NCBI RefSeq assembly: GCF_001592965.1
Contig: NZ_LRPC01000001.1
Coordinates: 620,001 to 684,000, forward strand
DNA: 64,000 bases
Source of the DNA: Roseivirga spongicola
Lineage (GTDB): Bacteria; Bacteroidota; Bacteroidia; Cytophagales; Cyclobacteriaceae
Direction of reading: 5' to 3'
Shown here: positions 49,284 through 58,987 of the stretch, in pieces
Numbering within the stretch: position 1 is the stretch's first letter
Layout of the letters: every line of letters starts with the position of its first letter
The notes under the pieces: generated by a model
Databases searched by the model: none
Told to the model about the DNA's origin: nothing
The model's input: the letters and a program-made list of their open reading frames with translations, nothing else
Program-made: the position numbers and the translations under genes

Positions 49284-51671
49284 CTATTCCTGCCTTAGAG
49301 TCTTTACAGGGTTCTTTTGAGCTGAGTTAAAAACTAAACCTCCTACCAAGATAAAAGTGAGTACTAAGGCGGCACCAACTCCTAAAGCGATCAGGCCAAA
49401 ATTGATTCCCGTTTGGTATTCAAAGTTTTGACTCCATTTGTCGATGCCTAAATAAGCCAATGGAACAGCAATTACACTAGCAATTAGTAGCAAGCGGAAG
49501 GTGCCCGAATACATAAGCCCGACAATCTGTGGAGACATGGCACCCAATACTTTACGAATTCCGATTTCCTTTCTACGCTGATCAATGTTAAAGGCCGTAA
49601 GCCCAATCAATCCAATAAGTGATATGATGGCGCAAAGGAGGGTCATAAAAGTGATTAGCTTACTTTGTGTTCTATCGGCTTCGTATAATGTGCTCAGCCT
49701 GTCATTAAGAAAGTTGTATTCAAACGGGTAATTAGGCAACTGTTCGTTCCATACTGCCTCCACAGCCTTTAAAGCTTCCGAAGCTTGATTTTGATTAAAT
49801 CTCACAATTAAATGCCTGCCCGGGTTGGGGTTGTAAACGAAAACCAAAGGCTCAATTGGGTTATGGAGAGAGAAGTGATTAAAGTCTCTCATTACTCCTA
49901 TAACCTGCCCAGGCTCTTGTTGGTGAAAAAAGCCTAGCTTCTTCCCAACAGGTTGATCCCAGCCTATTTCTCGAGCAGCTGTTTCATTGATCACAAACTT
50001 TGCATTACCACTTGTCTCGTCTTTGGTGAAAAATGTTCCTTCAGCCAAGGGGATACCAAAGGTCTTGAGGTAGTCAACTCCTCCGTGGATGTACTTAAAC
50101 TCCATTTGCTTCATCTCACCATCCTTTTCGACCTTAAAAACTATCTGCCCAATATCTGAACCCACTAAGAAGTTCGATGAAGTGACATTTTCGATCATAG
50201 GATAAGTCTCTAAAATATTTTTCATGGCAGTATACCTGCTCTGAGTTACTGAATCACTTGTGGTTATCATCATTACCTGATCTTTCTCAAAGCCCATATC
50301 CTTATTCTGAATAAAGGAGATCTGATCTTTCATGAGCAATGTGCTGAGCAGAACGCCTATAGATATAACGAACTGAAATAACACTAAACCTTGGCGAACC
50401 ATCTGTCCAGACTTTGAGGCTGTCCATGTTCCTTTGAGTGCAGAAACTGACTTGATCTGCGAAAGATAGAAAGCTGGATAAATGCCAGCTATCAGGCCAG
50501 TAAGTAGCACAATGGCCAATGTGCCGAGCAAAAGTGGAGGGTTTTGGAAGAGTGTAAAATCGAAGCTTACTCCAAGCCAGCTTTGTAAAGGAGAGTTAGA
50601 AATAAGTGCCCACACCATAACAATGGCTAGAAGGTAAGATACAATGGATTGTACCAAAGACTCGGTAAGCAAAGAAGCTCTCAGGCTGTTGACGTTTGTT
50701 CCTAAAACCTTTCTGATTCCAATTTCCTTCGCTCTTAAACCTGCTCTAGCCGTGGCCAAATTGATGTAGTTAATACAAGCTAGAAAGAGTATGGCCAAGC
50801 CTACAGAGGAGAAAACCAATAAATTGGTTGGGTTGCCTTTAGCAAAATCATCATCAATGCTCTCTTTATCGTAATGAATGGATGATAGCTGCTGAAGTCT
50901 CAGTTTGTGATTCCCATTAATCTGATTACCAAAAGGCATGTAATACTTTTCATTGAACGGAGCGAACTTGGCTAAAATGTCTTCTTTGGTGGTGCCTTCT
51001 TCTAGTAACACATAGTTAAGTCCGTCAGCATTCCACAACACCTCTGAGTTGAACACACCGTCTTGCATGGCAAACTCTCTGGTTTGAATGCCTGCAATCA
51101 GCACGTCAAATTCAAAGTGTGTGTTTTTTGGGAGGTCCTCATAAACCCCAGTAACTTTTAAGTCTTGGTTATCAATTCTGATGGTTTCATTCAATCCTAA
51201 TTCATCACCGAATAACTTGTCATTGACAGACTTAGAAATAATCACAGCATTCGGGTTTTTTAAGGCAGTTTCCGAATTGCCAATCAACAGGTTTAAGTTG
51301 AAAATATCGAACACGGTAGGATCGGTGTAATACATTCGCTCTTGGCTGAATGATTGGTTGTTGTATTTAATTTCTGGTTGGCCAACAAAACCAAATCGAG
51401 AAAAACTTTCTATTCCCGGGAGTTCTTCCTTCATCTTTGGCATCAGCTCAGAAGCGGAGTAGGCTGTGTTGAACTCTACACCTGGTGCAGAAAGCACATG
51501 GCTCACCCGATAGATTCTCTCATGGTTATTGAAATGTTGATCGAATGTTAATTCGTTCTGAAGAAACATAACCAACCAAATGGTAGCGGCAAGACCAAAA
51601 GTAAGCCCAACAACGTTTAAAAGGCTGAATAGACGGTTTTTCCAAAGAATTCGAAGAGCAAATTTAAGCAT
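49284..51671 (-). CDS. FtsX/MacB-type ABC transporter permease (copy 3)
   Basis: 795 residues, start MLKFALRILWKNRLFS. It has the same double-FtsX layout as the two copies at 39272-44409: TM at ~18-38, MacB-like domain, GIRKVLGTNVNSLRASLLTE loop, second periplasmic domain, GIRKVLGAMSPQIVGL loop, and terminal TMs. No ATPase is nearby. It lacks the prefix domain and has no PadR partner, so it is probably regulated differently from copy 2. Confidence 0.88.
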   Translation of the reverse strand: MLKFALRILWKNRLFSLLNVVGLTFGLAATIWLVMFLQNELTFDQHFNNHERIYRVSHVLSAPGVEFNTAYSASELMPKMKEELPGIESFSRFGFVGQPEIKYNNQSFSQERMYYTDPTVFDIFNLNLLIGNSETALKNPNAVIISKSVNDKLFGDELGLNETIRIDNQDLKVTGVYEDLPKNTHFEFDVLIAGIQTREFAMQDGVFNSEVLWNADGLNYVLLEEGTTKEDILAKFAPFNEKYYMPFGNQINGNHKLRLQQLSSIHYDKESIDDDFAKGNPTNLLVFSSVGLAILFLACINYINLATARAGLRAKEIGIRKVLGTNVNSLRASLLTESLVQSIVSYLLAIVMVWALISNSPLQSWLGVSFDFTLFQNPPLLLGTLAIVLLTGLIAGIYPAFYLSQIKSVSALKGTWTASKSGQMVRQGLVLFQFVISIGVLLSTLLMKDQISFIQNKDMGFEKDQVMMITTSDSVTQSRYTAMKNILETYPMIENVTSSNFLVGSDIGQIVFKVEKDGEMKQMEFKYIHGGVDYLKTFGIPLAEGTFFTKDETSGNAKFVINETAAREIGWDQPVGKKLGFFHQQEPGQVIGVMRDFNHFSLHNPIEPLVFVYNPNPGRHLIVRFNQNQASEALKAVEAVWNEQLPNYPFEYNFLNDRLSTLYEADRTQSKLITFMTLLCAIISLIGLIGLTAFNIDQRRKEIGIRKVLGAMSPQIVGLMYSGTFRLLLIASVIAVPLAYLGIDKWSQNFEYQTGINFGLIALGVGAALVLTFILVGGLVFNSAQKNPVKTLRQE

Positions 51672-52061: not shown

Positions 52062-55000
52062 TTATTCATGATTAGGAAGAGAAGTTCGATCATTTCTCTC
52101 GAAATATATCTCTGGCAGTACAATTCCCACTTCTCGATCGGAGTCTTCTGCTTTCCAGAAAAGAAGATAGTTTATCTTACAGTCTTTGGTTTTGAAGCCC
52201 TTTTCTTCGAGTTCTTTGAGCTTTTTCTTGAAGCTTTTTGAAAACTTGAGAACAAACTCTCTGTTAGTATTAAGGCAACCCTCTTCGGATAGTAATAATG
52301 CATCTCCACTTAATAGTTCACGAATTCGATGTTGTACAAATTCAAAATATCCTAGTTGAACGTCTCGGTGTGTCAATTGAAGGAGAATTTCATCCGGTGG
52401 TGAATAGACAGAGGGATCAATAGTCTTGATTATGTTTTGACTATTAATATGCTCAAACACGCGGCTATTTAAATGAATGGAAAGATTTTGTTTTGCTCTA
52501 GTTAAGGCTACATATACTTGCCTTTTTGCCTCATCAGTATTTAGATTAAAGTTATCAAGAAGAAGAAATATACTATCGAACTCTTTTCCCTTTGCTTTGT
52601 GAATAGTGGATACAAATATTGTCTCGACATCCTCACCATAAAAGTCTTCCAACTTTGATTCTCTAATAAAAACCTCAAAGTCAGAACGGTATTTCTTTTT
52701 AGGATTAGTGACTTCAAAGTCTCTTATAATATTTTGGCAAATCTCTAAAGTAGTACTGCTTTCAAATTGGTTGCGTAGCTCTCTTTTCGCTTCCTCCCAG
52801 TTTTCTTCATGGACTATATAAGAAGATTCGTCCAAGTTTAATTGACCAATGAAAAACCGAACCTCCACAAGGTTATATAAACTAAATCCATCATTGGTCT
52901 GAATGAGTTTGGCATTCCTCTTATTATTAAGAAGCAATCCGGTAACAAACATTGCTTCTTCATTGGTTTTTGTTAGAACACAGGTTGTGCCCATCAGTTC
53001 ACTTTCAAGTATACTTTGAACTAAGGGTGTAATCAGGTTTGTACTTTGATATTGAATAATTTTTATAACGCCTAGGCCTGCTTGTCTGGCAATGATCGGA
53101 GTGTTCTTTAATCTATGATGAATTGTTCTAACAAATTGATTAGTAAATTCTACCAAATTTGATTTGCTCCTATAATTCTCAACTAGTTCATACTTTACAG
53201 CCTTATTGGTTCGAATGAATTGCTCTAAATATTTGGAACTTGACCCCCTAAATTCGTAGATGTTTTGATCGTCATCGCCAACAGCAATCACTCTCATTTC
53301 TTCATTTTGCTCCATCAAAACCTGAATGAGTTCAAACTCATCGGAATTCATGTCTTGAGCTTCATCAATAACCAAGACTGTACGAGCTATTCTATTTGAC
53401 TCTACTTCTCCTACTCTTATTCGCTCGACAGTTCTTTTGAGTATACCATCTGATTTGTCTAGAGTTCCAACCTTGCCCAATAAATCGAAACAGTAAGAAT
53501 GAAACGTCTTTATATCTACATACAATGCAGCATTTCCTATTAATTGTAAGAGGCGTTTCTTAAACTCTGTTGCAGCTGCTCTTGAAAATGTAAGCATCAA
53601 TAATTGTTCGTGCTTTACATCTTCCATCAAAAGCAGTGAAGCCAACTTATGGACTAATACCCTTGTTTTGCCACTCCCAGGGCCTGCTGCAACTACAATC
53701 TGTTTAGATTCTCTATCATTTATAATTTTTAACTGGGTAGGAGACAGTTCTCCAAAGAGCTGTCTGAACTTGGAGGGTGTAATATTTCTCTTAATCTCAT
53801 CTTGTCTACTTCCTTTAAAGTACTTAGATAAAAAAGATTGATCATTCAACTGAAAGTAGTCCTCCACAAATTGCAAGGCATCTTTATAATCGCTGATCAT
53901 TTTTTTAGCATATTCCCCTACAATATGTATTTGCTGAACTTTGGATTCATAGAACTGATTGAGTTTTTGATAGTCCTCTATTTTGTACCTTTTCTTATTG
54001 TCTTGTTCGATACGCTCTACCGTCAATTTATTGTATACTACAAGAAACCCACCTTCAATTTTTATTGCTTCAATTCGTGATAGATAAAACAGAGTATCTT
54101 CTATGTCGTCAGTGGAAATATTTAGCCTGAAAAGCGCCTGACGGTTTTCATAAGCTTTTTTTAACTCTTGAACAGAAAACTCTACTAATACCTGTTCCTT
54201 TTCATTACTCGGTTTTAAAGAAGAACTCTTTTGATGGAGTAATTCAATTATGAATTGAGCCAACTCATGGCGCTTCTCCAGTTTATCTTGAAGTGCCAAT
54301 TTTGATTGACTACACAATACGGTTATGTGGTTTTTGGATGGGTCTAGATGCCTTTTAATCCAGTTCTTGATCGCCCAAAAATTGATGATTGTTTTCAACT
54401 TTTGAGGACTGACTTCATTACAGCCATTTTCCTCAGCTGTTTCATTCAGCTCTTTGATATGAAAAGTTCTTTCTTCCTCTTGAAAAACGGACAGCAGAAA
54501 CTTTTCAATTTTGGCATATACTTGAACTATATGAAGTGAACGATTTACACTCTCATCTTTCTGAATAAAAGCTGTCAAGTCTTTCGCATCTGCTAGAATT
54601 TTTTCCTCCCTAAGAAGTTTCACAATATTGATGACTTCTTCTTTGACAATTCCAAGATGATCAGATATGTAATCAACACGAGATTCGGCTACATCATCAT
54701 TACTCTGTTTTCTGCTCTTGCTTGAGAAAAGGGATTTAATTATTCGAACTCCCTTCTCCTTTTGATTTTCCTGAAACTTTTCAGATGCGTTTATTCTATC
54801 GATTGCCTCTTGTGCATTCTTAGCTAGAATGCTGTTAGCAAATATCCTCGGCATATTTTGTCCTCGCTTCAGATAGCCAGCATCTTCTAAGGCGGCAATA
54901 GCTGTTGTAACCCGGGTCTCTATATCTCTTATATTGTCATCCCACCCTGCCTTTCTAGCGATTTCTAAAGCGGAGTTAGAGGCTGTTGAACGAAACCTTG

Positions 55001-56882
55001 TGATATGCTTAATCGCTTTCCAGATTTGTTGAATTTCTTTGATACTCAATTTGGTTTGATTGAGTAGAATGAAGTGCTTGCTAAGGTCTTCTTCATTGAA
55101 AAGCACGTAACAATCAGCCGTAATGCTTTGATCCCTTCCTGCCCTACCAGCTTCTTGAACATAGTTTTCTAGTGAATCAGAGATTTCATAGTGAATAACC
55201 ATGCCAACATCTTTCTTGTCAACCCCCATTCCAAAGGCAGATGTAGCGACCATTATTTGTACCTCTCCATTTATGAAAGCATCCTGATTGGCAGACTTTT
55301 CTTGCTTCTCCATTCTACCATGGTAAGGCCTGGCTTTATACCCATCTTTTACCAAGCGCTCTGCAAGTTCATATGCCCTTCTGGTCCGAGAGACATAGAT
55401 TATTGTAGGACAATTCTTTTCATCCACTAAATCTCTTGCTGTATTGTATTTTTCCTCTTCATTCTCCTTTTCAAACACTTGATAATGAAGGTTCTTTCTT
55501 GATTCTTTTGAGCTGAAAAGCTCTAAACTCAATCCCAGTTTATTCTTGAAATACTCTCTTATATCTTCAATAACCTTTCTCTTGGCAGTAGCCGTGAAAC
55601 AGGAAACTGGTATTCCCTCTTCTAAATTCTTCTTTTCCTGAATTGACTTGATAAAATCGCCTATGTATAAATAATCTACCCTAAAGTCTTGTCCCCAAGA
55701 AGAGAAACAGTGTGCCTCATCAATGACAAAACGTGAGATTTTTCTACCCAGAATCAATCTTTCTATACTCTTTGATCTCAGGGATTCAGGGGATATATAA
55801 AGGATGGATGCCGAACCATCTTCAACCCTTTCAAACGACTTACTACGTTCAATTGGATCCAATAGCCCATTGATTGTTACAGATTCGGTAATCCCAACCC
55901 TTTCCAAATTATCTACTTGATCTTTCATCAGGGATTGGAGAGGTGAAATAACCACCGTTAAACCTCTTGTGTTTTCCCCGCTCATCAAGGCAGGCACTTG
56001 GAATGTAATTGACTTTCCTCCCCCTGTTGGAAAAACGGTTAGTATTGATTTGTTGTCGATTGCTGCTTTTACAGCCTTTTCTTGTAATGGTTCACCGCCA
56101 TAGCTTCGATATGAGTTAAAACCAAAAAACCTTTTTAAGCCAGCATGAATATCTAATGCCTGATCACAATAAACACAGCCTTTTATACAGGGTTTATTCC
56201 TTAGAAGGAATACAATTCGTTCTACTTCCCTATAGTTTCTTAATACCCATGGTGGGGTAATTGAATACTTGTTTTTAGAATTAATCAAAGCCAATGCATA
56301 AGCTAATTCTACAGGGTGTTCAGAGCTTATCTTAAGCAGATTGGAGCTTGTGCAGATCTTCGATTGAAAGAATCCATGTATTAATTCTGTAGGGTTTTTA
56401 TATTCCGATCTATAGTCAACAAAATTGAAAAAAGAGGAAAACTCTTTTTTGTCGTGTAAAAGCAGGTAGAGGATTTCTTTAAAATGACCTTCTGTTTTTT
56501 GAAATGCAGTGAGTTCATCAAAAAAGAGGTCTTTAGCTTTTATTGAGTCATTAAGTGGGTTATTAATTTCTTCTGTGAGAAGTTTGTCATCCTTCAATAG
56601 ATTATGATATGGTTTTGAAGGGAATAGTAAAGGCGATAAATGCAGTGTATCTATTACCTTCTTTGATTCAAGGAAATCCTGAGAAAAGGAGTTGCGAATA
56701 AATTTAAGATCGTGGCTTAGAATATTATGACCACATATAAACTCTGAATCAGTCAGGAATCGGATAAAGTCAGGTATAGAGTTTGAATGAAATGAATCTC
56801 CATTTGATTTTATAGCACCTATATCGAGGATTCGATTATTCTTTGGGTCAACTTCTGTATCAATGAAGACTATATTTTTCAT
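52062..56882 (-). CDS. DEDD exonuclease - RecQ helicase - UvrD-like helicase fusion
   Basis: 1606 residues. Residues 1-125 form a 3'-5' exonuclease of DEDD type: D8-T-E10, H52-N53 with D58, and a third motif around N111-D112 to D117. A cysteine cluster C232/C236/C239 with H246 precedes the RecQ core. That core has Walker A TGGGKS (286-291), DEAH 388-391 followed by CFSSWGQDFRVDY, TAT 430-432 and QEAGRAGRD from Q576. Residues ~620-1030 are helical linkers. An SF1 helicase follows: Walker A GPGSGKT (1067-1073), DEAQD 1173-1177, GDDDQNIYEFRG from 1202, STIHKAKGKEFD from 1425 and VALTRAKQNL. RecQ alone is ~600 residues and UvrD ~700, so three enzymes are joined. It overlaps the HNH gene as ATGA. 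I read it as the processing motor of a defence or repair cassette; all catalytic motifs look intact. Confidence 0.9.
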   Translation of the reverse strand: MKNIVFIDTEVDPKNNRILDIGAIKSNGDSFHSNSIPDFIRFLTDSEFICGHNILSHDLKFIRNSFSQDFLESKKVIDTLHLSPLLFPSKPYHNLLKDDKLLTEEINNPLNDSIKAKDLFFDELTAFQKTEGHFKEILYLLLHDKKEFSSFFNFVDYRSEYKNPTELIHGFFQSKICTSSNLLKISSEHPVELAYALALINSKNKYSITPPWVLRNYREVERIVFLLRNKPCIKGCVYCDQALDIHAGLKRFFGFNSYRSYGGEPLQEKAVKAAIDNKSILTVFPTGGGKSITFQVPALMSGENTRGLTVVISPLQSLMKDQVDNLERVGITESVTINGLLDPIERSKSFERVEDGSASILYISPESLRSKSIERLILGRKISRFVIDEAHCFSSWGQDFRVDYLYIGDFIKSIQEKKNLEEGIPVSCFTATAKRKVIEDIREYFKNKLGLSLELFSSKESRKNLHYQVFEKENEEEKYNTARDLVDEKNCPTIIYVSRTRRAYELAERLVKDGYKARPYHGRMEKQEKSANQDAFINGEVQIMVATSAFGMGVDKKDVGMVIHYEISDSLENYVQEAGRAGRDQSITADCYVLFNEEDLSKHFILLNQTKLSIKEIQQIWKAIKHITRFRSTASNSALEIARKAGWDDNIRDIETRVTTAIAALEDAGYLKRGQNMPRIFANSILAKNAQEAIDRINASEKFQENQKEKGVRIIKSLFSSKSRKQSNDDVAESRVDYISDHLGIVKEEVINIVKLLREEKILADAKDLTAFIQKDESVNRSLHIVQVYAKIEKFLLSVFQEEERTFHIKELNETAEENGCNEVSPQKLKTIINFWAIKNWIKRHLDPSKNHITVLCSQSKLALQDKLEKRHELAQFIIELLHQKSSSLKPSNEKEQVLVEFSVQELKKAYENRQALFRLNISTDDIEDTLFYLSRIEAIKIEGGFLVVYNKLTVERIEQDNKKRYKIEDYQKLNQFYESKVQQIHIVGEYAKKMISDYKDALQFVEDYFQLNDQSFLSKYFKGSRQDEIKRNITPSKFRQLFGELSPTQLKIINDRESKQIVVAAGPGSGKTRVLVHKLASLLLMEDVKHEQLLMLTFSRAAATEFKKRLLQLIGNAALYVDIKTFHSYCFDLLGKVGTLDKSDGILKRTVERIRVGEVESNRIARTVLVIDEAQDMNSDEFELIQVLMEQNEEMRVIAVGDDDQNIYEFRGSSSKYLEQFIRTNKAVKYELVENYRSKSNLVEFTNQFVRTIHHRLKNTPIIARQAGLGVIKIIQYQSTNLITPLVQSILESELMGTTCVLTKTNEEAMFVTGLLLNNKRNAKLIQTNDGFSLYNLVEVRFFIGQLNLDESSYIVHEENWEEAKRELRNQFESSTTLEICQNIIRDFEVTNPKKKYRSDFEVFIRESKLEDFYGEDVETIFVSTIHKAKGKEFDSIFLLLDNFNLNTDEAKRQVYVALTRAKQNLSIHLNSRVFEHINSQNIIKTIDPSVYSPPDEILLQLTHRDVQLGYFEFVQHRIRELLSGDALLLSEEGCLNTNREFVLKFSKSFKKKLKELEEKGFKTKDCKINYLLFWKAEDSDREVGIVLPEIYFERNDRTSLPNHE

Positions 56883-57868
56883 CTAAAAACATTAACTCCA
56901 TGCCATTCTAGGCTCTCTCTATTTGGCCAGTATTTTTTATTCGCTGGAAGACTTATTCGCTGGCCCTCGAATTGCCTAAGCGTAAGTTTGCCTTCCTCCA
57001 CGAACCCTTCAGAAACCCTAACTCGGAAGTCTGGAGTAATACTCAATAACCCTCTATCGAATGCACGATGCAAGTTTGGACATAAGGCGATTCCATTGGT
57101 TACCGTGTCATCATAACTTTCACTAAAGGGTATTATATGGCAAGCATCTATCATCGAGATGTTATGCATTGAGCTGACCCTCAGCCCTGAAATACAGCAA
57201 GAATGATCGTATATTTTTGGAATTTCACGCTTGAAAACTGACCCTCTAAGAAAGATTTCCTCGTCATTTTTTTGAGTCAACAGTTCCTTTGTTCTATCTC
57301 TATAATATTCGGAAGGATCGTTTAAAAAGCTGTATTCTAAATCATTGAAAAGTGAGACAGGGTCTTGTTCAGAAAAGTAACCCTTAGTGTTTGGAAAATA
57401 TTCTTCTAACAAAACCTGCAAGAGAGCCTTTCTAGAAGATGCATCATTAAGTAACTCAAATAAGGGTTTTTCGATCTCGGCATACTCCACCGCAGCATTT
57501 AGGTTCGCAAAGCTCTTGACTAACGAACCCATTGTATTCAGGTTGCTAAATCCAGCCTTTGGCTTCAACACCCAAAAACCCTCGCTTTTCATATAGAAAA
57601 AGGGATAGGATATCCGACAATCATGATTGGTTTGAACAAGCTTATTCCAGTTGGTTTTGAAAAGAGCAACCAATTCAGGTGTCAGATAAATCTTAGGTTC
57701 TGATATTCGTTTGGTTTCATATGCCTGAATAATAGAAAGAAGAAGAATCGGCTTGTGCGGGGCAATGCCGTGAGAGCGATCGATTCGTAGTTTACGAAAG
57801 ACTTTAAGGTATTTCGTAAGAAACTCATTTTGCTGTGGTGTGCCGTTTATTGTTGAGTGTTTTTCCAT
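56879..57868 (-). CDS. HNH endonuclease with putative modification-sensing N-terminal domain
   Basis: 329 residues. The C-terminal HNH nuclease shows C224/C225, then H244 in DACHIIPFSE, N258 in TNGIALCPNLH, H267 and D271. Residues ~15-130 hold a separate domain with GIAPHKPILLLSII (H38-K39-P40) and RISYPFFYM (Y88-P89-F90). These motifs remind me of the sulfur-binding domain of ScoMcrA-like type IV restriction enzymes that read phosphorothioate DNA; this is recollection, not a search. The ATG is 6 nt after the stop of the YCF48-like gene. The end overlaps the helicase fusion by 4 nt, so both proteins are made together. No methylase or dnd genes are near. Confidence 0.85.
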   Translation of the reverse strand: MEKHSTINGTPQQNEFLTKYLKVFRKLRIDRSHGIAPHKPILLLSIIQAYETKRISEPKIYLTPELVALFKTNWNKLVQTNHDCRISYPFFYMKSEGFWVLKPKAGFSNLNTMGSLVKSFANLNAAVEYAEIEKPLFELLNDASSRKALLQVLLEEYFPNTKGYFSEQDPVSLFNDLEYSFLNDPSEYYRDRTKELLTQKNDEEIFLRGSVFKREIPKIYDHSCCISGLRVSSMHNISMIDACHIIPFSESYDDTVTNGIALCPNLHRAFDRGLLSITPDFRVRVSEGFVEEGKLTLRQFEGQRISLPANKKYWPNRESLEWHGVNVFR

Positions 57869-57874
57869 ACAATT

Positions 57875-58942
57875 CTACTCAATATACCTAAATCCCAACT
57901 TTGCTACAGCTCCACCCGGGCCACTGGCCCAGGCTGATTTGCCTGTTTTGGAAACGGATACAGCGTAGTATTTTCCTTCCATTGGAGTATAGGCTTTGTC
58001 TCCATCGTAATAATAGTCGCAGCTTTCTCGGCCAACGGCCAATACTAGGTTGTTGTCGTAAACGGCTACTCCAGAGCGATAACCATTCGGCTTCATACCG
58101 GCCATTACCGGAAACCAGCTTTTGCCACCATCTGTGGTATAAGCCGCATTGATTTTGGTGAGCGAATCGCCACGGTAATCGCCACCAACCATTAGGCCTT
58201 CCATTTCATTTTTAAAGTCGATTGAGAAAATACCTTCTGTAGATTCTCCTGATTGCATCGGGGTGATGGTTTTTTGCCAGGTTTCTCCTTTATCGAAGGA
58301 GTAGAAAAGGCTGGCTTCTTGCCCTCCCAAACCAATATAAACCTGATTTTCACCAACAGTTCTCAGGCAAGTGCCACTGGCCGCAAAGCCTCCCTGACCA
58401 TCAAGTGCTTGCGGTCTTTGTTCAAATGGAAGTTCGTTCCAGGTTTCTCCACCATCGGATGTTTTGAGGATTAAAAGTCTGCCATCTATAGCATCGCCAA
58501 AAGCAATGCCTTCCTTATCATTCCAGAAATCCATGGCATCGTAGAAAGTGCCTTCTACCATACTGAAATACTTCTGTTCCCAATTCTGGCCGCCATCCGT
58601 TGTTTTGTAAATCACTGCTGGAAGGCCTGCACTGAGCACAATGGCCGTGTTGGAATCGAATGCTTCAATATCCCTGAATTGAAGCGTATCAGTACCGGGA
58701 ATAGAAACATTCTCCCAAGTGGTTCCGCCATCTATAGTTCTGATCACAGTTCCTGTGCTTCCACTGGCCCAAGCTACATCATCAGAAACGGCAGAAAGAC
58801 CACGGAACCCTGCAGTTACCCCAGATTCTTGCGGTTGCCAATAGGGTGTAGGCCTTTGTTGGTTGGTTTCTTTTTGATCGTCTTGTTTTGAACCACATGA
58901 GACTAGCAAAACAAGAAGCATGAGAGCAATGGTCTTTTTCAT
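57875..58942 (-). CDS. YCF48/BNR-like beta-propeller lipoprotein
   Basis: 355 residues from the ATG at 58942 (MKKTIALMLL); the longer frame adds seven residues. The lipobox VLLVSC gives lipidated C16. The rest contains repeated BNR/YCF48 motifs with the T-x-DGG-x-(T/N)-W core: IRTIDGGTTWENV, YKTTDGGQNWEQK, LKTSDGGETWNEL, YSFDKGETWQKT and YTTDGGKSWFPV. This makes a seven-bladed-type propeller. YCF48 homologues help assemble photosystems in phototrophs; here the role is unknown and any oxidoreductase label would be unsupported. Confidence 0.85.
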   Translation of the reverse strand: MKKTIALMLLVLLVSCGSKQDDQKETNQQRPTPYWQPQESGVTAGFRGLSAVSDDVAWASGSTGTVIRTIDGGTTWENVSIPGTDTLQFRDIEAFDSNTAIVLSAGLPAVIYKTTDGGQNWEQKYFSMVEGTFYDAMDFWNDKEGIAFGDAIDGRLLILKTSDGGETWNELPFEQRPQALDGQGGFAASGTCLRTVGENQVYIGLGGQEASLFYSFDKGETWQKTITPMQSGESTEGIFSIDFKNEMEGLMVGGDYRGDSLTKINAAYTTDGGKSWFPVMAGMKPNGYRSGVAVYDNNLVLAVGRESCDYYYDGDKAYTPMEGKYYAVSVSKTGKSAWASGPGGAVAKLGFRYIE

Positions 58943-58987
58943 TAGTGAGCTATTATAATGCATTTAGCTTCCCTAAAATAATTAAAT

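What the first reader, a model, noticed from the sequence alone, without database searches (positions are those of the whole stretch)
52062..57868. Two-gene candidate defence cassette: HNH endonuclease plus exonuclease-RecQ-UvrD fusion
Seen: the HNH gene and the 1606-residue fusion overlap as ATGA on one strand, so they are co-translated. Known: HNH nucleases with a separate sensing domain act in type IV restriction, and helicase-nuclease fusions degrade DNA in several immune systems. Inference: the HNH protein marks or cuts modified or foreign DNA and the fusion unwinds and digests it. No transposase, integrase or methylase is present. I do not recognise this pairing as a named system.
Basis: partly seen in the sequence, partly recalled or inferred. 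Interest (0 to 1): 0.82.

Follow-up and report, generated by a model that had tools for sequence, protein, structure and literature searches.

The report
Sulfur-mark restriction nuclease with helicase partner
Two overlapping bacterial genes appear to encode a DNA-cutting enzyme whose sensor domain resembles those that recognise sulfur-marked foreign DNA, and a large two-motor DNA-unwinding protein that usually lives alone; close relatives of the nuclease also sit directly in front of other immune operons, which suggests an exchangeable sensor.

Summary
The two genes exist exactly as described: HNH (329 aa) and fusion (1606 aa) overlap as ATGA. The HNH protein's sensing domain is a DNA sulfur-binding domain (SBD): PDB SBDHga1 8h0l at E=8.7e-28 by profile, NCBIfam PT-DNA_restrict 109.6 bits, below its 180 cut-off. 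So it is most likely a phosphorothioate-dependent type IV endonuclease, a known kind. The fusion is a sporadic, mobile RecQ+UvrD protein; its exonuclease rests on motifs only. The pair is real but rare: 3 of 94 fusion loci outside the window with 1 kb upstream carry the overlapping SBD-HNH, on separate fusion branches. In the HNH subclade of ten, five precede the fusion, one precedes Hachiman hamAB by 6 bp, one overlaps a MksE/SMC (Wadjet-like) operon, one lies behind a type IV-like helicase gene, one precedes PDC-S13/RmuC, and one has no named defence gene. In the closest relative examined the pair is deleted, leaving a fusion remnant. Best reading: an exchangeable sulfur-sensing nuclease plugged in front of DNA-processing immune machines. 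Cooperation between the proteins is inferred, not shown. I found no named system for the pair.

The parts
56879..57868 (-). SBD-HNH endonuclease gene (329 aa): sulfur-binding-domain-like residues about 17-156, HNH_2 domain 224-277
   Evidence: PDB 8h0l SBDHga1 E=4.5e-11 single sequence, 8.7e-28 by profile; ScoMcrA SBD entries 5zmm/5zmo; NF045808 PT-DNA_restrict 109.6 bits, cut-off 180; HNH_2 1.5e-12; H38-K39, Y88-P89 and the HNH core motif present
52062..56882 (-). DEDD-motif / RecQ / UvrD fusion gene (1606 aa); RecQ-type helicase about 249-635, UvrD-type helicase about 1045-1480
   Evidence: TIGR00614 recQ_fam 268.5 bits (cut-off 219.8); UvrD-helicase 6e-33, DEAD 1.1e-30; motor motifs present
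56154..56882 (-). first 243 codons of the fusion: putative DEDD 3'-5' exonuclease region followed by a conserved C177 / C232-C236-C239 cysteine set
   Evidence: D8, E10, D58, D112, H93 the same in 119 of 119; cysteines invariant in the 36 rows of A3 and in 117-118 of 119; no Pfam hit; weak PDB hits only
56879..56882 (-). ATGA overlap of HNH stop and fusion start (coupled translation likely, inference)
   Evidence: the same overlap in L032, L093, L188 and L212
57875..58963 (-). BNR/YCF48-like gene directly upstream (6 bp gap), conserved in the genus: left border of the insertion
   Evidence: 19 of 19 genus genomes (window's included) have it; synteny; PSII_BNR
49284..51671 (-). MacB/FtsX-type permease gene: right border; its 74% counterpart was seen only in the closest relative G119 among the 17 regions fetched

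Best explanation
The pair is an accessory, horizontally moving immune operon. The first gene makes a type IV (modification-dependent) endonuclease whose SBD binds phosphorothioate (PT) linkages in incoming DNA made by PT-modifying neighbours, and whose HNH domain cuts nearby [SBD and HNH homology shown; PT dependence inferred]. The second gene, probably translationally coupled, makes a two-motor helicase (RecQ-type plus UvrD-type) with a probable 3'-5' exonuclease [motors shown by homology; exonuclease by motif only]. It would load on the ends or nicks made by the HNH enzyme and unwind and degrade the DNA so that it cannot be religated or rescued [inferred]. The fusion lacks this HNH partner in most loci examined, so the HNH enzyme is best seen as an interchangeable front-end sensor added to an independent DNA-processing machine.
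For: SBD: 8h0l E=8.7e-28 and ScoMcrA SBD by profile; all 41 sequences of A1, the window's included, match NF045808 PT-DNA_restrict at E<=0.001. The residues named for sulfur recognition ('HR or HK and YP', PMC7461809 passage) are H38-K39 and Y88-P89 here. No DndC match in the own genome (other PT systems were not searched), as expected of a PT-restricting strain. Coupling: the same ATGA junction in five loci (window, L032, L093, L188, L212) on four separate branches of the fusion tree. Slot sharing: in the same 10-row HNH subclade (97/90), HNH precedes HamA-HamB by 6 bp in L216 and overlaps a MksE/SMC operon in L219. Mobility: fusion in 12 of 241 order and 26 of 395 class genomes, window genome counted in both; lower GC (36.2% against 40.7%); a Desulfospira isolate copy in a clade of mostly Bacteroidota copies; a remnant in the closest relative G119.
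Against: Only 3 of 94 fusion loci outside the window with at least 1 kb of upstream sequence carry the overlapping SBD-HNH, so the fusion does not need it; conversely 4 of 51 SBD-HNH loci (window's included) show the fusion within their 1.5 kb flanks. Co-occurrence over 395 class genomes is near chance: 26 and 26 carriers, 3 with both (window genome included), about 1.7 expected. NF045808's curated cut-off is not reached by the window protein (109.6 against 180). No exonuclease family model matched the N-terminus. Padloc tallies of near (2+2 genes) and far (edge of flank) neighbours both contain defence genes, so enrichment close to the fusion is not shown. No structure prediction could be had.
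Confidence: 0.5

Rival explanations
1. Two independent defence genes that merely share a transcript: the SBD-HNH enzyme restricts PT-DNA alone, as EcoWI does, and the fusion is a stand-alone defence or DNA-processing gene. The overlap reflects compact operon building, not cooperation.
For: Most fusions examined stand without it (3 of 94 with it) and most SBD-HNH relatives without the fusion (4 of 51 with it in their flanks); EcoWI restricts PT-plasmids alone in vivo (PMC7461809 passages); HNH and fusion histories disagree (own-L212: HNH 61.0%, fusion 60.3%; own-L188: 55.9% and 72.2%).
Against: Five loci on four fusion branches have the same four-base overlap; two other immune-type operons stand in the same slot behind close HNH relatives.
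Confidence: 0.4
2. The fusion is a repair enzyme (end resection by RecQ, UvrD and exonuclease) that protects the host, for example by mending self-inflicted HNH cuts, rather than an effector.
For: RecQ, UvrD and DEDD nucleases are classical repair enzymes (recalled); seven of the eight plasmid relatives opened carry the annotation note DNA recombination.
Against: Sporadic distribution (26 of 395), relatives on 26 plasmid records, loss in the genus, and the RecQ part scores far below the recQ equivalog cut-off (314 against 640.2): not a housekeeping repair gene.
Confidence: 0.12
3. The HNH protein senses another modification or backbone feature, not PT.
For: Score below the curated NF045808 cut-off; [quoted passage not shown]
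Against: Pocket residues H-K and Y-P kept; the SBD profile match is strong; a DndC-start fragment lies just upstream of the pair in L213.
Confidence: 0.15

Closest known systems
SBD-HNH phosphorothioate-dependent type IV endonucleases (EcoWI, SprMcrA, SBDHga1)
   Same: N-terminal SBD plus C-terminal HNH, single chain of about 300 aa, residues named for sulfur recognition kept, no DndC match in the genome
   Different: Below the curated NCBIfam cut-off; coupled to a helicase gene, whereas the word 'helicase' occurs nowhere in the main text of PMC7461809, the screen that analysed SBD-HNH neighbourhoods (term count)
RecQ-like helicases of defence systems (PsyrT/RqlH, DpdF)
   Same: RecQ-type motor region scores well with their models (1.6e-81 and 2e-96)
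   Different: No PsyrA or Dpd partner among the three neighbours scanned; extra UvrD motor and DEDD region; below the DpdF equivalog cut-off (220.4 against 550)
Gabija GajB / UvrD-type immune helicases
   Same: UvrD-type motor next to a nuclease gene
   Different: No GajA among the genes scanned; GajB hits cover the UvrD motor only
Hachiman hamAB and Wadjet-like MksE/SMC operons
   Same: They occupy the same downstream slot behind close relatives of this HNH gene (L216, L219)
   Different: Unrelated machinery; here the RecQ-UvrD fusion stands in its place

Membership tests
PT-dependent SBD-HNH type IV endonuclease | SBD homologous to solved SBDs | tested here: met
   8h0l E=8.7e-28; ScoMcrA 5zmm 5.7e-7, 5zmo 9.6e-5 (profile)
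PT-dependent SBD-HNH type IV endonuclease | Residues named for sulfur recognition (H-R/K and Y-P) | tested here: met
   H38-K39, Y88-P89; K39 and P89 invariant in the 41 rows, H38 at 90% or more; ScoMcrA equivalents seen in the alignment
PT-dependent SBD-HNH type IV endonuclease | HNH catalytic motif present | tested here: met
   H244, N258, H267, D271 in invariant columns; that these are the catalytic residues is recalled
PT-dependent SBD-HNH type IV endonuclease | NCBIfam NF045808 above its curated cut-off | tested here: not met
   109.6 bits against 180; alignment 31-329 / 15-284 of 284. The model is of type 'exception', so I take this to lower the claim of being that named enzyme, not of being SBD-HNH
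PT-dependent SBD-HNH type IV endonuclease | Cleavage depends on PT | not testable with these tools
   Needs biochemistry
RecQ family helicase | TIGR00614 subfamily cut-off | tested here: met
   268.5 against 219.8 bits
RecQ (equivalog, housekeeping) | TIGR01389 equivalog cut-off | tested here: not met
   314 against 640.2 bits
DEDD exonuclease | Family model or structural match for residues 1-243 | tested here: inconclusive
   Four acidic residues the same in 119 of 119; the usual motif-III His (position recalled) is N107 in 114 of 119; no Pfam hit; PDB best E 0.11; structure prediction unavailable
PsyrTA | RecQ-like PsyrT with PsyrA partner | tested here: not met
   No such partner among the HNH gene and three neighbours scanned
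Gabija | GajA plus GajB pair | tested here: not met
   No GajA-like hit among the genes scanned
Dpd | DpdF equivalog score and Dpd cluster | tested here: not met
   220.4 against 550 bits; no Dpd-like gene among the three neighbours scanned

The most novel reading that the evidence does not exclude
SBD-HNH proteins of this subclade are an exchangeable sulfur-sensing front end: the same nuclease gene has been placed, with overlapping codons or a gap of a few bases, in front of at least three unrelated DNA-processing immune machines (RecQ-UvrD fusion, Hachiman, MksE/SMC Wadjet-like). It gives them PT-DNA as a trigger or entry point, which would make the RecQ-UvrD fusion a new broadly distributed defence machine.
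Probability: 0.3. Interest if true: 0.72.

Novelty: new variant of a known kind. Interest (0 to 1): 0.52.

Why it matters
PT modification is a widespread backbone mark, and the PT-dependent SBD-HNH nuclease EcoWI restricts alone (PMC7461809 passages). A sensor that is repeatedly docked onto different helicase or SMC machines would show that modification sensing and DNA destruction are separable modules, would give a first testable function to a large RecQ-UvrD protein whose relatives are annotated only as 'RecQ family ATP-dependent DNA helicase', and would suggest how PT-modifying and PT-restricting strains exclude one another.

Tried and rejected
Pair as an obligate two-gene system: rejected, since most fusion loci lack the HNH gene. 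Fusion as a core syntenic gene: rejected. Phage origin: none of the 20 phage records with a hit at E<=1e-40 covers 80% of the fusion; the 15 listed cover 21-24% of it, the RecQ part. The IMG/VR pattern scan found nothing, but it used only six eight-residue peptides. Defence-gene enrichment near the fusion: inconclusive; padloc tallies of 120 nearest and 120 edge-of-flank proteins from 30 loci with full flanks both held defence families (97 and 146 families at E<=1e-10, 25 of each shown), and no random-genome control was run. Recombination at the fusion 5' end as the cause of HNH swapping: identity between window and L212 is not raised over the first 150 columns (52%), so not supported. Methyltransferase-HIT protein as a constant partner: rejected; 14 of 395 class genomes match it, 10 of them with the methyltransferase part (one cut at a contig end) and 4 in the HIT part alone, and none of the 10 is among the fusion carriers. 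Against that rejection: it is adjacent to the fusion in L021 and L042 and lies nearby in L010 and L214, with a C-terminal remnant in L040, and in G624 the HIT-only match lies about 2.8 kb upstream of the fusion. The fusion tree is FastTree only, and neither tree was AU-tested for the pair. Rows dropped: 6 of 125 fusion loci shorter than 1300 aa or unmatched (L015, L031, L071, L075, L210, L211); the partial loci L018-L020 were not put in; alignment A1 used 41 of 54 HNH rows. The genome-contig scan kept the best 80 of 216 relatives, so distant fusions are under-sampled there. Literature: ten paper searches were answered, besides one rejected for its wording; judged from the listed titles and abstract starts (one search listed 20 of 38).
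Full report
WHAT IS THERE. The HNH start is 6 bp downstream of the stop of a BNR/YCF48-like gene (57875-58963). The fusion and the HNH gene have lower GC (36.2% and 39.6%) than the window as a whole (40.7%), the MacB gene (41.2%) and the BNR gene (46.1%).

THE HNH PROTEIN. Pfam sees HNH_2, with a sub-threshold HNH_4, but NCBIfam aligns residues 31-329 with the phosphorothioated-DNA-binding restriction endonuclease model NF045808 (1.5e-31, 109.6 bits; cut-off 180), and all 41 sequences of alignment A1, the window's included, match that model at E<=0.001. PADLOC gives a generic HNH model (1.9e-19) and a weak type IV restriction hit (0.00066). Against PDB sequences the single protein finds SBDHga1 (8h0l, 4.5e-11), and the profile finds it at 8.7e-28 plus the ScoMcrA entries 5zmm/5zmo/5zmn. 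PMC7461809 (passages) names 'HR or HK and YP' as the residues for sulfur recognition; PMC7470945 (section 17, and passages) describes the pocket of SprMcrA. The window protein has H38-K39 and Y88-P89, which line up with a ScoMcrA His-Arg and Tyr-Pro in the alignment. H244, N258, H267 and D271 of the HNH motif lie in invariant columns. DndC was not found in the window's genome (other PT-modification genes were not searched). So this is very probably an SBD-HNH enzyme; PT dependence is inferred.

THE FUSION. RecQ-type (249-635) and UvrD-type (1045-1480) motors carry their motifs. RecQ scores pass the family cut-off and fail the recQ equivalog cut-off. The first 243 residues hold D8, E10, D58, H93 and D112 in 119 of 119 homologues, with N107 (114 of 119) where a DEDDh enzyme would have His (position recalled). 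No Pfam model hits there and the best PDB profile match is E 0.11 to an exodeoxyribonuclease III. Exonuclease is therefore probable by motif, not established. C177, C232, C236 and C239 are invariant in A3, a possible metal or Fe-S site (inference).

DISTRIBUTION. The fusion is found in 12 of 241 order genomes and 26 of 395 class genomes at E<=1e-100 (the window genome is counted in both), and relatives in 26 plasmid records at E<=1e-60, of which 5 cover at least 80% of it. In the eight plasmid regions I opened, from eight different organisms, it is annotated 'RecQ family ATP-dependent DNA helicase'; within the 8 kb flanks there are HipA (2), BrnT and VapC toxin genes, a type I RM system and a Cas6 gene in six of them, and elsewhere ordinary genes. 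Genome contigs gave 80 relatives, best of 216; apart from the fusion itself no gene family was shared by more than 9 loci, and those lay at scattered positions. A Desulfospira isolate copy lies in a clade of mostly Bacteroidota copies. The SBD-HNH protein is in 44 of 291 order genomes (E<=1e-15) and 26 of 395 class genomes (E<=1e-50), window genome included.

HISTORY AT THIS SITE. All 19 genus genomes searched, the window's included, have the BNR gene. Seventeen regions of other genus genomes were fetched; none has the pair, but two of them (L151, L157) stop at a contig end at or inside the BNR gene, so 15 are informative; the eighteenth genome (G249) was not fetched. In the closest relative, G119, BNR and MacB flank a 51-residue remnant of the fusion C-terminus (residues 1548-1598, 72.5% identity), with no HNH trace. 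The pair, or at least the fusion, was thus at this site in a common ancestor of the two, or arrived and was then deleted in G119.

IS THE PAIR REAL? Outside the window, among fusion loci with at least 1 kb upstream (63 from genome contigs, 8 from the order set, 23 from the class set), three have an SBD-HNH gene overlapping the fusion start: L032, L093, L188. L029 and L187 are identical copies, so 93 of the 94 are distinct. A fourth overlapping case, L212, came in through the HNH search. Two more loci have an SBD-HNH gene nearby: L214 (after the fusion) and L021 (0.9 kb downstream, other strand). In all five overlapping pairs, the window included, the junction reads ATGA. On the fusion tree these pairs sit on four branches (FastTree); on the HNH tree all five lie in one 10-row subclade (97/90) inside a 13-row clade (100/100). 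Gene histories conflict: window and L212 are sisters by HNH (100/100), while by fusion the window goes with L021. In the 395 class genomes 3 hold both genes (G000, G563, G580), about what independence predicts (1.7); in G000 and G563 they overlap, in G580 they lie on different contigs. So the pair is a repeated local association, not a genome-wide dependency.

WHAT ELSE STANDS IN THE SLOT. The ten members of the HNH subclade: five precede the fusion. L168/L216 precedes HamA (2.8e-111) and HamB (E 0, 1074.4 bits) by 6 bp. L171/L219 overlaps by four bases an operon of a protein with no family hit, MksE (1.1e-45), a DUF3584 SMC (1.5e-52) and a DUF7281 protein; PADLOC sees only a weak JetC match (8.9e-6), so 'Wadjet-like' is my reading. 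L166/L215 lies about 0.4 kb behind a PLD/helicase/DUF3427 protein that matches a type IV restriction model (755 bits). L169/L217 stands about 0.2 kb before a PDC-S13 candidate defence gene and RmuC. L170/L218 has no named defence gene that I recognised (it was not family-scanned), only a 102-aa gene that looks like that of L217. This, more than the rare pair itself, supports reading the fusion as an immune machine.

OTHER PARTNERS OF THE FUSION. Ten neighbour proteins from seven loci of my choice were scanned: a DUF4268 protein (L099, PDDEXK_4 below cut-off), a DUF5655 protein (L022, HSDR_N_2 below cut-off), AbiEii (L056), another HNH_2 protein (L059), a NOV_C protein (L021), an ordinary aspartyl-protease-like protein (L073) and, in L021 and L042, an HNH_4 gene plus a methyltransferase-HIT fusion. 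The methyltransferase part (L214 copy) weakly matches the 'DNA phosphorothioation-associated putative methyltransferase' model (52.3 bits, cut-off 150).

LITERATURE. Ten searches were answered. By listed titles and abstract starts, none was a paper on this RecQ-UvrD fusion or on SBD-HNH genes coupled to helicase, Hachiman or Wadjet operons (one search listed 20 of 38). I saw passages or one section of five papers, and the library holds open-licence papers only. PMC7461809 (passages) reports under 3.6% association of SBD-HNH enzymes with dnd clusters and in vivo restriction of PT-plasmids by EcoWI alone.

VERDICT. A known nuclease kind in an apparently undescribed coupling to a widespread, uncharacterised helicase fusion. 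Cooperation is plausible and testable, not shown.

Noticed in passing
L213:10075-10236 (just upstream of the SBD-HNH gene): A 54-residue ORF matches the start of DndC (TIGR03183, 7.5e-11, below its cut-off as expected of a fragment) and stops there: a remnant of a PT-modification gene directly in front of a putative PT-restriction gene.
   Followed up: partly
L021:8113-10004, L042:8108-9998, L220-L231: An HNH_4 gene plus a methyltransferase-HIT (or HIT-only) gene form a recurrent two-gene module, usually without the RecQ-UvrD fusion; in L223 the preceding ORF end looks (by eye) like a PAPS-reductase/DndC C-terminus. The HIT part of the L214 copy also matches a ThsC model weakly.
   Followed up: partly
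L216, L217, L218, L219: An RmuC gene and/or a small 101-102-aa gene recurs near these SBD-HNH genes, with a Bro-N/PDC-S13-type gene in L217; the L219 copies of RmuC and of the PDC-S13-type gene were seen by eye only.
   Followed up: partly
window fusion residues 177, 232, 236, 239: Four conserved cysteines (117-118 of 119 homologues) between the DEDD-motif region and the RecQ motor suggest a zinc or iron-sulfur site.
   Followed up: no
L115, L118, L212: A second, shorter HNH protein (about 254-257 aa, different N-terminus) sits next to the SBD-HNH gene in L115 and L118, and in L212 directly after the fusion (HNH_2).
   Followed up: partly
L141:10000-10152: C-terminal remnant of the fusion in the closest relative, at the syntenic site.
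   Followed up: yes
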